This document shows, piece after piece, positions 44,898 to 50,091 of a DNA stretch of 64,000 nt. This DNA is from Chloroflexota bacterium (GTDB lineage Bacteria > Chloroflexota > Dehalococcoidia > Lucifugimonadales > UBA3495). The translations under genes were made by a program, and so were the position numbers. The notes beneath the pieces were generated by a model. That model saw only the letters and a program-made list of their open reading frames with translations, was not told the DNA's origin and searched no databases. Numbering within the stretch: position 1 is the stretch's first letter; every line of letters starts with the position of its first letter. The stretch covers positions 1 to 64,000 of the forward strand of contig JAPPCX010000116.1 in the NCBI GenBank assembly GCA_028875655.1. The letters are read 5' to 3'.

Positions 44898-46222
44898 GTG
44901 ACAGACGCAAACCGGCTGTACTTCGGCGACTGCCTGGACGTCATGCGGGAGTTCATCCCCGATGAGTCCGTTGACCTGATTTGCACCGACCCGCCGTTCA
45001 ACAGCAAGCGGCTCTACAACGCATTCATCGGCGGCGCGCAGTTCGTCGCCTTCGATGACACCTGGCAGTGGTATGAGGCCGTCGGCGACTTCCACGAGGT
45101 GGCCCAGCAGCCGGCCTACCGGGGCCTCATGGAAGGGCTGCGCATGATGCTGGGGGAAGGCCCGCAGCTCGCCTACCTGTCATACATGGCGAACCGGCTG
45201 CTGGAATGCCGGCGCGTGCTGAAGCCCACCGGGTCAATCTACCTTCATTGCGACCCCGCAATGAGCCACTACCTCAAGACTGTGTTGGATGGACTTTGGG
45301 GGGGGGGGGGAACTTTCGGAACGAAGTCATTTGGTGCTATCACGCAGGCGGAGCATCGCGCCGATATTTTCCGCGCAAGCACGATGTGGTTTTGCTGTAT
45401 GGGAAGAATAGCCGACAGGCTTTGCATCACCCCATTCGCGGTGTACCGTACAGGGACATCTATGCCTACGACAAATCCGGCAACCTCCAAACCCAAAACG
45501 GCTACCATCCTGACGGCAAGATGATGTCTGACTGGTGGGAAATAGCGCAAATGTCCTCAGTATCAAAAGAACGGATGGGATACCCGACTCAAAAGCCAGT
45601 GGCATTATATGAGCGGATGGCAATGGCTAGCAGCAACGAAGATGACATCATTCTTGACCCGTTCTGCGGCTGCGGGACAACGCTACATGCGGCGCAAAAC
45701 CTCAACCGGCGTTGGATCGGGATAGACATCTGCGTCAACGCCTGCAAGGTCATCGAACAGAGGCTCAAGGGCCACTTCGACAGTCTATGGAACGAAGTTG
45801 AGTTTGTGGGGATGCCCAAGACCCGCGATGATGCCCAGTTCATGGCCGGCAGCGACCCGTTCCGGTTTGAGCGCTGGGCGGCGTCCCTGGTGGACGGCAT
45901 GGAGGCCAACCGCAAGCAGCGCGGCGACGGCGGGATTGACGGCTGGGGCCGTCTGCCGCTGCGCAAGGGCCGGTTCGTCGATATGGTGTCCCAGGTGAAG
46001 GGCGGCCACACCAACCCCGGCCACGTCCAGGCATTCAATGGAGCGCGACAGCAGGCCGGCGCCGACCTCGGTATATTCACCTGTTTTGAAGAGCGAGTAA
46101 CTGCCGGAATGCGCAACGCGGCGGTGAGCGCCGGCGTGTTCATGGACGCGCCGGTAGTCCAGATTTACACGATTGAGGACTACTTCGAGGGACGCAAACC
46201 GGCCATGCCGGTATCGGCGTAA
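44898..46222 (+). pseudogene. passenger DNA methyltransferase fused to Mrr-like nuclease, frameshifted at a G13 run
   Basis: Two frames join at 45298-45310. Upstream (from GTG 44898 after CGGAGG): LYFGDCLDVM, the beta-class motif IV TDPPFNSKRLYN and VLKPTGSIYLHCD. Downstream: NFRNEVIWCY, GYPTQKPVALYERM, the AdoMet motif DPFCGCGTT, then from about 45860 a C-terminal domain RFERWAASLVDGMEANRKQ, RGDGGIDG and MVSQVKGG, resembling Mrr-type PD-(D/E)XK nucleases (GID...QVK). With 13 G the upstream frame stops at 45524. With 11 G the join reads LWGGGNFRN, the normal family spacing; with 14 G it has one extra Gly. It may be phase-variable, inactivated, or an assembly error. Restored length is about 440 residues. 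Type III-like or combined methylase-nuclease role is inference. Confidence 0.85.
45298..45310 (+). repeat. poly-G tract (13 G) at the methyltransferase frameshift
   Basis: Thirteen consecutive G, the longest homopolymer noticed in the window. It lies in the conserved region between methyltransferase motif IV and the AdoMet motif. Its length decides the reading frame. Confidence 0.95.
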
Positions 46223-46233
46223 GGAGTGAGATC

Positions 46234-46392
46234 ATGCCCAGGAAACAGACCGAAACGCCGAAGCCGGAAGATGACGGCAAGGCGTGGGAACGGTTCAACG
46301 CGCTGCTGAGCCGGGCTAGTCAGCCCGTAGGCAAGAAGGTATCTGCCCCAGCAAAGTCTGAAACATCGGGGCCGCGTCGTGCCGGTGATTGA
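46234..46392 (+). CDS. 52-residue small protein encoded after the methyltransferase
   Basis: AAGGAGTGAG gives a strong ribosome-binding site 4-10 nt before the ATG, which is 11 bp after the methyltransferase stop. The product starts MPRKQTETPKPEDDGKAWER and continues FNALLSRASQPVGKK, a basic/acidic helical peptide. Its last 77 bp overlap the 3' end of the transposase gene in the antisense direction, so the tail could have been captured when the two modules were joined. Small proteins of this style often accompany such methyltransferases, but I cannot name a family. Confidence 0.55.
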   Translation: MPRKQTETPKPEDDGKAWERFNALLSRASQPVGKKVSAPAKSETSGPRRAGD

Positions 46393-47212
46393 ACCGGAAC
46401 ACGTAGGAATCGAGATAGCCTTGCAGGTGCTTGGGACTGACGACGTGGTTCACCCCGTCGATACCGCGCTTGGTGTTCGACCAGAACCCTTCGATGTTGT
46501 TGGTATGGGCGCGACCGGCGACGTACTGCTTGGCGGAATGGACTACCGACCAATGGGCATAGCCCAGGCTGGACAGGCGGTTGTACGCGCCGTGTTCGTC
46601 GGTGAAGACGACGGCGCGGTTGGGGTGAACGTGGTCTTGCACCATCGGGATGATGGTATCGGCGCGGTTGTCGGGCTGGACCTTGACGACGGCGTTGCCC
46701 TCGCGCTCCACCATGCCGACGACGGTAGTCTTGCCGACCGGCCCGCCCCCGGCGTGAAGTTTCTTGCCTTCATGCTTGTTGGCCTCTTTCCCACCGATAT
46801 AGGTTTCGTCAATCTCCACGTCGCCGAACAGTTGCAGCCCGTCTTCCTGGGCCATGAGTTCCCGGATCTGCTTGAACATCCGCCACGCGGTTTTGTAGGT
46901 GACGCCGGTTTCGCGTTCCAGCTGCTTGGCGGATATGCCCGTGCGGGTAGAGGCCATGAGGAACATGGCGTAGAACCACGTTCGCAGGGGTGTGCTGGAC
47001 TTGTGAAAGATGGTGTCGGCGCAAGGCGAAACGTGGGCGGAACACCGGACACAGGCGAAGACCTTGCGGCCCTGAATACGGCAGTGGGCGGTGATTTCGC
47101 CGCAATGCTGGCAGTGGATACCATCGGGCCAGCGCAAGTCTTTCAGGTATTCGAGGCAAGCATCCTCGGTCGGGAACTTGTCGTTGAACTGTTTCAGCGT
47201 GTACTTTTCCAT
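46316..47212 (-). CDS. IS1595-family transposase (ISXO2-like, DDE type)
   Basis: The 298-residue protein starts with a zinc-ribbon domain (HCQHCGEITAHCRIQGRKVFACVRC in parts: CQHC and CVRC pairs) and helical region FHKSSTPLRTWFYAMFLMA. The catalytic domain has DVEIDETYIGGKEANKHEGK (first Asp), VVFTDEHGAYNRL (second Asp) and HTNNIEGFWSNTKRG (third acidic residue). ETYIGGK is typical of this family. The start codon at 47212 is only 6 bp from a -10 box, so the mRNA would be leaderless. The gene appears intact, so the element may be active. Confidence 0.93.
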   Translation of the reverse strand: MEKYTLKQFNDKFPTEDACLEYLKDLRWPDGIHCQHCGEITAHCRIQGRKVFACVRCSAHVSPCADTIFHKSSTPLRTWFYAMFLMASTRTGISAKQLERETGVTYKTAWRMFKQIRELMAQEDGLQLFGDVEIDETYIGGKEANKHEGKKLHAGGGPVGKTTVVGMVEREGNAVVKVQPDNRADTIIPMVQDHVHPNRAVVFTDEHGAYNRLSSLGYAHWSVVHSAKQYVAGRAHTNNIEGFWSNTKRGIDGVNHVVSPKHLQGYLDSYVFRFNHRHDAAPMFQTLLGQIPSCLRAD

Positions 47213-47295: not shown

Positions 47296-47350
47296 ATCCT
47301 GCTAATCCCGTGATCCGGCGAATCCGGGTTCTGACAAACGTCGCTCAATT

Positions 47351-47447
47351 GGCGGGAGTGCGAGGGAGTCGAACCCACCTACCCCGCTCGTCACGAGGCA
47401 TAACGGATTTGAAGTCCGCAAGAGCCACCGGGCCCCATCCACTCCCG
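47351..47447 (-). tRNA. selC: tRNA-Sec (selenocysteine, anticodon TCA)
   Basis: Read on the minus strand the 97-nt sequence starts GCGGGAGT and ends ACTCCCGC, an 8-bp acceptor stem extendable to 9 bp (GCGGGAGTG/CACTCCCGC). There is a long D stem (GGGCC/GGCTC), the anticodon arm GCGGA-CTTCAAA-TCCGT with anticodon TCA, a long variable arm CTCG-TGA-CGAG, and a TTCGACT T-loop. A TCA anticodon with long variable arm and extended acceptor marks tRNA-Sec. The T stem contains one T-T mismatch (GTGGG/CCCTC). No 3' CCA is encoded. It implies that this organism decodes UGA as selenocysteine; selA, selB and selD are not in the window. Confidence 0.93.
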
Positions 47448-47910: not shown

Positions 47911-47925
47911 CCAACCGCCCCCGGC

Positions 47926-48036
47926 GTTCATGGTGAGCCTGTCGAACCACATTATCGCGCCAATCGCCGTCATTCCCACATCTCCCACCGTCATTCCCGC
48001 TCGCACCATCGCCGTCATTCCCGCGAAAGCGGGAAT
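47926..48036. repeat. repeat cluster: GAGCCTGTCGAA copy, two half-sites and one full palindrome
   Basis: GTTCATGGTGAGCCTGTCGA (47926-) is followed by half-sites CCGTCATTCCC at 47969 and 47990, and a complete ATTCCCGCGAAAGCGGGAAT at 48017-48036. The cluster fills the gap between the divergent thioredoxin and methyltransferase-Maf genes. Confidence 0.85.
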
Positions 48037-48069
48037 CCAGCGATGGCTATAGGTGATAGTATATTTGCC

Positions 48070-50091
48070 ATGATCCAGACCGCCGCCATCGTCCCTCCGC
48101 CTCTCCAACGCGGCGACGTCATCGACCTCGATCTGCTCTCCTGGGGCCGTTTGGGAGAGGCCATGGCAACCCACGACGGCCGCGACGTTTTCGTGTTCGG
48201 CGGCATCCCGGGCGAGAGCGTTTCCGCGGAAGTGGTCGCCGTTCGCCGCAAATACGTCGCAGCCCAGGTGCTCAGCGTGAACCGTCCGTCGCCCCATCGT
48301 GTCGGCCCGCCGTGCCCATATTTCGGCCGGTGCACCGGATGTCAGTGGCAGCACGTATCCTACGCAGCGCAGCTCAACGCCAAAGCCGGCATCGTCGCGG
48401 ACGCGCTGGAACGGATCGGCAATTTCCACAATCCCCAGGTGCTGGATGCCATCCCGTCGCCCAAACCCTTCGGCTACCGTAATCACGCCCGTTTCAACGT
48501 CTGGCGTTCCACCGGCAGCCTGGGATTCACCCATCGCGAGCGGCGCCGGTTTGTCCAAATCGACCGCTGCCTGCTGATGAATGACCGCACCAACGAGCTG
48601 TTGGCGCAGCTTCAAGACCGCTGTAATGAAACCTCCGCCCTGTCCATACGCGCCTCTGATGCCACCGGCGACTACCTCGTCCAGCCCACCCTCAAAAATT
48701 CGGATGTGCCGGTGCCCACCGGCCAGAAACGCTACCGTGAATCGGTCGCCGGCCACGAGTTCTGGGTCGCATCCCCCTCGTTCTTCCAGGTCAACGTCGA
48801 ACAGGCCGGCAGGTTGGCGGAGCTGGCAATAGACGCGCTCCGGCTGTCCGGCGCCGAGACCGTCGTGGACGCCTACGCCGGCGTGGGCGCATTCTCGGTC
48901 CTGCTTGCCCCCCACGCCGCTCGGGTCATCGGAATCGAAGAGTCCACGGCTGCCATCGCCGACGCTGTGGAAAATGCGGCCAACCTCCCCAACGTGGAAT
49001 TCATCAGCGGCAAGGTCGAGGATGTCCTGCCTGGCCTCGAAGTCATACCCGACGCGGTTGTGTTGGACCCCTCGCGCACCGGCTGTCAGCCGTCCGTTCT
49101 GGAAACGCTGCTCGAGCTGGCTCCCCCCCGCATCGCCTACGTGTCCTGCAACCCGCAGACCCTCGCCCGCGACCTCGCCATGCTGTGCCAGCGTTACCGC
49201 GTTGAGTCGTTACAACCCGTGGATATGTTCCCGCAAACACATCACGTGGAATGCCTGGCGTCCTTGAGCCTCAAACCCGCTCAGGCCGAAATTGTGCTGG
49301 CATCGGCATCGCCCCGCCGCCGCGCCCTGCTCTCCGACCTGAACATCGACTTTCGCGTCGCTCCGTCCAACATACCGGAAGACCCTGAACCCGGTGAACC
49401 CCCGGAGTGGATGGTGCGGCGCTTGTCCCGGGAAAAGGCCCTGGCGGTCGCCGAGCAGGAGTCCGCGGATTCGGGCTACTACGTCGCCGCCGACAGCACG
49501 GTAGTGCTCGACGGCGAGTCCATCGCCAAACCCGCCGACGCCGGCGAAGCCCGGGATATGCTCACCCGCCTGCGGGGCACCGCGCACCAGGTCACCACCG
49601 GCATCACCGTGTACGATGCCGCGACCCGCCGGTGCGTCACCGAGTCCCACACCGCGGACGTGCTGATGCGCGATTTCAGCGACACCGAGATGGAGCGGTC
49701 CATCGCCAGCGGAACACCTATGGACAAGGCCGGTGCTTACGCTATCCAGGACGACGAGTTCCGCCCGGCATCTTTGCAGAGCGGTTGTTACTCCAATGTC
49801 ATGGGCCTGCCCGCCTGCCGCGTGGTCGAGATCCTGGCCGAAATGGGCTGCGAATTGCCCGACCGCGCCGACATGACCGTGCCACCGGGTTGCACCATGT
49901 CCTGCCCCCTCAGCCATCCCCAACCTTCAACCGCTCATGGTGAGCCTGTCGAACCACATCCCGCATCCTCAACCGCATCCCACATCCCACCCGTCATACC
50001 CACATCTCCCACCGTCATTCCCGCGTCTCCCACTGTCATTCCCGCGAAGGCGGGAATCCAGAAACTCCCTGATTCGGAAGCCTCGCCGTGA
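48070..50091 (+). CDS. fusion of 23S rRNA/tRNA uridine-C5 methyltransferase (TrmA/RlmD-like) and Maf nucleotide pyrophosphatase
   Basis: The 673-residue protein joins two known enzymes. Residues 1-400: TRAM-like N-terminus, the [4Fe-4S] motif PCPYFGRCTGCQWQH near 80, AdoMet motif VVDAYAGVGAFSVLLAP, catalytic Cys in SCNPQTLARDLAML near 360, and the typical end VDMFPQTHHVECLASL. This half methylates uridine C5 in 23S rRNA or tRNA. Residues about 405-620: Maf, with VLASASPRRRALL, AADSTVVLDGESIAKP and MLTRLRGTAHQVTTGI; it hydrolyses non-canonical or modified NTPs. The last ~50 residues are encoded by repeats (49933-50057). The ATG at 48070 is chosen because a -10-like TATATT lies just upstream. 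No stop or second start separates the domains. Confidence 0.88.
   Translation: MIQTAAIVPPPLQRGDVIDLDLLSWGRLGEAMATHDGRDVFVFGGIPGESVSAEVVAVRRKYVAAQVLSVNRPSPHRVGPPCPYFGRCTGCQWQHVSYAAQLNAKAGIVADALERIGNFHNPQVLDAIPSPKPFGYRNHARFNVWRSTGSLGFTHRERRRFVQIDRCLLMNDRTNELLAQLQDRCNETSALSIRASDATGDYLVQPTLKNSDVPVPTGQKRYRESVAGHEFWVASPSFFQVNVEQAGRLAELAIDALRLSGAETVVDAYAGVGAFSVLLAPHAARVIGIEESTAAIADAVENAANLPNVEFISGKVEDVLPGLEVIPDAVVLDPSRTGCQPSVLETLLELAPPRIAYVSCNPQTLARDLAMLCQRYRVESLQPVDMFPQTHHVECLASLSLKPAQAEIVLASASPRRRALLSDLNIDFRVAPSNIPEDPEPGEPPEWMVRRLSREKALAVAEQESADSGYYVAADSTVVLDGESIAKPADAGEARDMLTRLRGTAHQVTTGITVYDAATRRCVTESHTADVLMRDFSDTEMERSIASGTPMDKAGAYAIQDDEFRPASLQSGCYSNVMGLPACRVVEILAEMGCELPDRADMTVPPGCTMSCPLSHPQPSTAHGEPVEPHPASSTASHIPPVIPTSPTVIPASPTVIPAKAGIQKLPDSEASP
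49933..50057. repeat. repeat cluster encoding the C-terminal tail of the methyltransferase-Maf protein
   Basis: GCTCATGGTGAGCCTGTCGA (49933-) then half-sites CCGTCATACCC (49991), CCGTCATTCCC (50012) and a full palindrome at 50038-50057 (centre GCGAAGGC). All are in frame and translated as AHGEPVEP...IPTSPTVIPASPTVIPAKAGIQ. Confidence 0.85.

What the first reader, a model, noticed from the sequence alone, without database searches (positions are those of the whole stretch)
48070..50091. Fusion of rRNA/tRNA uridine methyltransferase and Maf pyrophosphatase
Seen: complete TrmA/RlmD-type methyltransferase with Fe-S cysteines and catalytic Cys, directly followed in one frame by a complete Maf domain. 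Known: Maf proteins hydrolyse modified nucleotides such as m5U and pseudouridine triphosphates. Inference: joining an enzyme that makes 5-methyluridine in RNA to one that removes m5UTP-like nucleotides after RNA turnover would be a making-and-cleaning pair. This functional link would be unusual and testable.
Basis: partly seen in the sequence, partly recalled or inferred. Interest (0 to 1): 0.7.

Follow-up and report, generated by a model that had tools for sequence, protein, structure and literature searches.

The report
RlmD methyltransferase–Maf pyrophosphatase fusion enzyme
One bacterial gene makes a single protein that joins an enzyme adding methyl groups to uridines in RNA to an enzyme of the kind that destroys such methylated uridine nucleotides, and the join is kept in dozens of related species, which suggests the two jobs are linked.

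Summary
Window 48043-50091 (+) is one open frame. It encodes a complete RlmD-type Fe-S m5U RNA methyltransferase (residues ~19-409) followed, after about six residues, by a complete Maf domain (416-600). It is not a chimera. The same fusion is open in 81 analysed Chloroflexota genomes from 21 family groups (39-90% identity), several of them single-contig. One has the exact chromosome size of an isolated Dehalogenimonas strain. In unfused relatives the two genes are usually neighbours on one strand: 74 of 77 near relatives holding both are fused or adjacent. In samples from other phyla they lie apart. Fused and split states changed at least six times on the tree. All tested catalytic residues are conserved in both domains. 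The Maf domain carries the YhdE signature (R-[T/S]-Q), whose characterised members prefer m5UTP. In this genome it is the only Maf, the methyltransferase is the only RlmD/TrmA-type enzyme, and no TrmFO was found. AlphaFold2 predicts a well-defined two-domain particle. The last ~50 residues are repeat-derived. No paper describing this fusion was found in the searched library.

The parts
48043..50091 (+). fused gene, 682 aa: RlmD-type m5U RNA methyltransferase + Maf
48097..49269 (+). RlmD-type methyltransferase (residues 19-409): weak TRAM-like N-terminus 22-77, Fe-S Cys 91/97/100/176, Q249, D342, nucleophile C369, base E403
49270..49287 (+). inter-domain linker (residues 410-415), no Met codon; 7-36 aa in relatives by the measure
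49288..49842 (+). Maf domain, YhdE type (residues 416-600): S423, R425, R426, E446, K465, D484, S485, K496, Q569
49932..50088 (+). C-terminal tail translated from a dispersed genomic repeat (...PVIPTSPTVIPASPTVIPAKAGIQ...), absent from the sister species
47925..48040 (.). upstream copy of the same repeat, ending just before the start codon

Best explanation
A genuine bifunctional enzyme. The N-terminal half methylates C5 of uridine in RNA with SAM, most likely 23S rRNA U1939 and possibly U747 as RlmCD does. The C-terminal half is a YhdE-type Maf nucleotide pyrophosphatase that cuts m5UTP, and also pseudo-UTP, dTTP and UTP, to the monophosphate. The genes were neighbours in a Chloroflexota lineage and fused, or split again, several times. 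The likely advantage is that m5U producer and m5U-nucleotide cleaner are made in fixed ratio, so that m5UTP formed after RNA turnover is not reincorporated. Shown: fusion, conservation, intact active sites, subfamily signature. Inferred: activities, RNA target, housekeeping benefit.
For: Open fusion in 81 non-redundant genomes and 21 family groups. Catalytic residues conserved in both domains: all tested ones invariant in 81/81 except Q249 (80 plus one unknown letter) and E446 (79 E, 2 D). Among 99 relatives, 77 hold both genes: 52 fused, 22 adjacent, 3 apart (my count); in unfused loci 48 of 50 gaps are 170 nt or less. Outside Chloroflexota, 13 of 13 assessable genomes of the Thermanaeromonas phylum and all assessable ones have them apart. 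At least 6 forced, 9 parsimonious fused/split changes. ATG codons are rare at the fused junction (7/82) against 31/50 near split maf starts. Sole Maf, sole RlmD-family enzyme, no TrmFO over cut-off. Domain distances correlate, r=0.86 in fused proteins. YhdE kcat/KM: m5UTP 5.7e5, dTTP 2.9e5, UTP 2.2e5 (PMC3899018). AF2 pLDDT 93.9/pTM 0.91, and 93.0/0.89 for a Dehalogenimonas-like homologue.
Against: No activity measured. No direct substrate flow: m5U is made in RNA, and Maf acts on free triphosphates after decay and phosphorylation. m5UTP was undetectable in E. [quoted passage not shown] Four relatives have RlmD without Maf. Adjacency beyond Chloroflexota was not seen.
Confidence: 0.5

Rival explanations
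1. Both halves are active but independent. The genes sat in one operon with a few bases between them, and loss of the stop codon joined them; the fusion is tolerated or only helps co-expression.
For: Unfused relatives have gaps of -1 to 170 nt, some with a single in-frame stop between the genes (L051, L058...VRD*MTVQLILAS...), so fusion needs one mutation. Both states coexist on the tree. Linkers vary in length and sequence between families.
Against: Long retention across 21 family groups with both active sites intact; AF2 pTM about 0.9 suggests a fixed domain arrangement; a similar linker (EKEQAF..RQ) in several families; the pair is kept together across families.
Confidence: 0.37
2. Maf here acts as a growth or division brake on dTTP/UTP pools, and the fusion ties that brake to ribosome maturation rather than to m5U clean-up.
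For: YhdE inhibits growth in E. coli through its pyrophosphatase activity and overexpression gives filaments (PMC4319933); E. coli metabolite data point to dTTP and UTP as in vivo substrates.
Against: No regulatory element seen in the protein; m5UTP is the better substrate of characterised YhdE.
Confidence: 0.1
3. Chimera, misassembly or lost stop codon: not a real fusion.
For: The window comes from a 123-contig assembly.
Against: The same fusion is open in 81 genomes, several single-contig.
Confidence: 0.01

Closest known systems
RlmD (RumA) / RlmCD 23S rRNA m5U methyltransferases
   Same: TIGR00479 over cut-off; fold match to spRlmCD Z 43.0 over 394 residues and E. coli RumA Z 41.1; Fe-S cysteines, nucleophile and base conserved
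   Different: carries a C-terminal Maf domain; RNA target unproven. The Fe-S cysteines appear replaced in the aligned part of spRlmCD
Maf nucleotide pyrophosphatase, YhdE subfamily
   Same: R-[T/S]-Q signature; fold match to YhdE Z 25.0 at 36% identity
   Different: not free-standing; the second signature residue is Ser instead of Thr in 37 of 81 fused proteins, including this one
Human ASMTL and archaeal Maf-methyltransferase gene pairs
   Same: a YhdE-type Maf covalently joined to, or encoded beside, a predicted methyltransferase (PMC3899018)
   Different: in ASMTL Maf is N-terminal and the methyltransferase is of another class (acetylserotonin O-methyltransferase-like), not an RNA m5U enzyme
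P. abyssi tRNA (uracil-54,C5)-methyltransferase
   Same: same enzyme superfamily, Z 36.1; shows that RumA-like enzymes can act on tRNA U54
   Different: archaeal, unfused

Membership tests
RlmD/TrmA m5U RNA methyltransferase | profile match over the curated cut-off | tested here: met
   TIGR00479 324.5 bits against 183.55
RlmD/TrmA m5U RNA methyltransferase | catalytic Cys in the SCNP/SCDP motif, base Glu, SAM-site residues | tested here: met
   C369, E403, D342 invariant in 81/81; Q249 in 80 plus one unknown letter
RlmD (Fe-S branch) | four Fe-S cysteines | tested here: met
   C91, C97, C100, C176 invariant in 81/81
RlmD | methylates U1939 of 23S rRNA | not testable with these tools
   needs LC-MS of rRNA; RlmCD and tRNA U54 targets not excluded
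Maf, YhdE subfamily | Maf fold and profile | tested here: met
   PF02545 168 bits; YhdE Z 25.0, rmsd 1.9, 186 residues
Maf, YhdE subfamily | signature R-T-Q rather than W-Q-E | tested here: met
   R425 and Q569 in 81/81; second position T in 44, S in 37. Ser is a conservative departure
Maf, YhdE subfamily | pyrophosphatase activity on dTTP/UTP/m5UTP/pseudo-UTP | not testable with these tools
   catalytic residues present only
ASMTL-type Maf-methyltransferase fusion | N-terminal Maf with an ASMT-like methyltransferase | tested here: not met
   order reversed and methyltransferase of the RlmD type

The most novel reading that the evidence does not exclude
The two domains form one rigid machine in which Maf works together with the RNA methyltransferase, for example cleaning m5UTP/pseudo-UTP locally or using its nucleotide pocket to gate methylation during ribosome assembly, rather than merely being co-expressed.
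Probability: 0.12. Interest if true: 0.75.

Novelty: new variant of a known kind. Interest (0 to 1): 0.5.

Why it matters
The physiological role of Maf proteins is still debated between cell-division arrest and clean-up of modified nucleotides. A fusion to an enzyme that makes m5U in RNA, kept across a bacterial class and apparently present in an isolated Dehalogenimonas strain, is gene-fusion evidence for the clean-up role and gives one protein in which both activities can be tested together.

Tried and rejected
Chimera or misassembly: rejected by 81 genomes. Internal start making Maf separately: ATG near the junction is rare (7/82), but GTG/TTG codons are common there (67/82 have some start codon; 12/82 with a weak Shine-Dalgarno match), so it is unlikely but not excluded. 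YceF (m7GTP) type Maf: rejected by signature residues. Fusion on plasmids: none covers 80% of the query. Literature on an RlmD-Maf fusion: none found in the held open-access library; subscription journals and domain-architecture databases were not searchable. Co-occurrence of RlmD and Maf is strong overall (p about 2e-7) but trivial where fused; restricted to unfused genomes it is weak (12/4/0/3, p=0.036). The tree was a quick search with 37 weak forks, so only six changes are firmly forced. Fetched split loci were partly chosen because both hits were listed, so the 48/50 adjacency figure is biased; the count is the fairer one.

Full report
OBSERVATION. The frame 48043-50091 (+) is open over 682 codons. 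NCBIfam TIGR00479 (RlmD) scores 324.5 bits and Pfam Maf 168 bits; the methyltransferase ends near residue 409 and Maf begins at 416. Against solved structures the halves match RlmCD/RumA and YhdE/Maf by sequence and by predicted fold: spRlmCD Z 43.0, RumA Z 41.1, YhdE Z 25.0, B. subtilis Maf Z 24.6, human ASMTL Maf domain Z 24.1.

NOT AN ARTEFACT. In the same genus every genome with a hit carries the fusion (13 genomes). From the fetched loci I classified 83 as fused. After leaving out L017, which has a stop inside Maf, and L180, which has large in-frame inserts, 81 fused proteins from 21 family codes remain, 39-90% identical to this one. Several are on single-contig genomes. One of these, L055 in G240, lies on a 1,772,240-base contig; this equals the chromosome size published for the isolated 'Candidatus Dehalogenimonas loeffleri' strain W (PMC11737167). 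That identification rests on size alone.

ORIGIN. Where the genes are not fused they are mostly neighbours on one strand. Counting the 99 relatives with the frames, 77 hold both genes: 52 fused, 22 adjacent, 3 apart. Among unfused fetched loci 48 of 50 gaps are 170 nt or less, and L051 and L058 have a single in-frame stop between the genes. In genomes outside Chloroflexota where both genes could be placed they lie apart. On a tree of both domains with the linker left out, the fused/split state needs 9 changes, at least 6 forced by well-supported branches (quick search). Gain and loss cannot be told apart. Domain distances correlate between the two halves (r 0.86 in fused, 0.76 in split), so the pair has been inherited together.

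BOTH HALVES ARE INTACT. In 81 of 81 fused proteins the four Fe-S cysteines, the nucleophile Cys369, the base Glu403, and Maf S423, R425, R426, K465, D484, K496 and Q569 are unchanged. Q249 is Q in 80 with one unknown letter; E446 is E in 79 and D in 2. The Maf signature is R-[T/S]-Q, the YhdE type, whose members hydrolyse m5UTP, pseudo-UTP, m5CTP, dTTP, UTP and CTP; E. coli YhdE has kcat/KM 5.7e5 for m5UTP against 2.9e5 for dTTP and 2.2e5 for UTP (PMC3899018). This protein has Ser at the second signature position, as do 37 of 81.

GENOME CONTEXT. In the window's genome this is the only Maf and the only RlmD/TrmA-type enzyme over cut-off; the remaining TIGR00479 matches that are listed are weak ones to the generic methyltransferase region. 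No TrmFO passes the cut-off in any of 60 relatives. The protein may therefore be the sole source of m5U in RNA in this organism. Neighbours are a thioredoxin gene on the other strand upstream and TatA/TatC genes downstream, which say nothing about the function.

STRUCTURE. AlphaFold2 with 63 aligned fused proteins gives mean pLDDT 93.9 and pTM 0.91; the Dehalogenimonas-like homologue L055, with a different linker, gives 93.0 and 0.89, with the linker predicted as a helix. Such pTM values for a ~390 + ~190 residue tandem suggest a defined relative placement of the domains. I did not see the aligned-error matrix or coordinates, so the interface is not described.

MECHANISM. Shown: one polypeptide-coding frame, conserved, with two intact active sites. 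Follows from family knowledge: SAM-dependent C5-methylation of uridine in RNA, and hydrolysis of a pyrimidine triphosphate to monophosphate and pyrophosphate. Inferred: that m5UTP is the relevant substrate and that joining the two is useful. A direct hand-over is not possible, because m5U is made inside RNA; a fixed production ratio or shared location is the plausible benefit. The plain rival is operon compaction with functionally neutral fusion, which I put at 0.37.

COMPARISON AND NOVELTY. Both parts are known families. Maf-methyltransferase fusions are known in eukaryotes (ASMTL), and a Maf gene sits beside a methyltransferase gene in Staphylothermus (PMC3899018), but ASMTL has a different methyltransferase class and domain order. 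I found no description of an RlmD-Maf fusion. I file it as a new variant of a known kind.

Noticed in passing
window 47350-47446 (-): A tRNA-Sec gene (anticodon tca) lies about 600 bases upstream of the fusion gene, suggesting the organism uses selenocysteine.
   Followed up: no
window 47925-48040 and 49932-50061: A composite repeat (core CATTCCCGCGAANGCGGGAATCCAG, 111 exact copies in the genome) flanks the gene on both sides in the same orientation; the downstream copy is translated as a C-terminal tail.
   Followed up: partly
L180 1443-4370 (+): A family member in a single-contig genome (G025) has the fusion with large in-frame low-complexity inserts (GAGDS-type repeats, one holding the reversed palindromic repeat) inside the methyltransferase; the frame is 976 codons and open.
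   Followed up: partly
L017 1477-2907 (+): Fused frame broken by a stop inside the Maf domain: a sequencing error or a decaying gene.
   Followed up: no
window 46316-47212 (-): IS1595/ISXO2-type transposase with zinc ribbon next to the locus.
   Followed up: no
window 45206-46222 (+): DNA methylase (N6_N4_Mtase) with a C-terminal Mrr/NA-iREase-like domain, possibly a combined restriction-modification protein.
   Followed up: no
fused proteins, residue 370: The motif after the catalytic Cys reads SCD in 52 of 81 fused proteins and SCN in 20, including this one.
   Followed up: no
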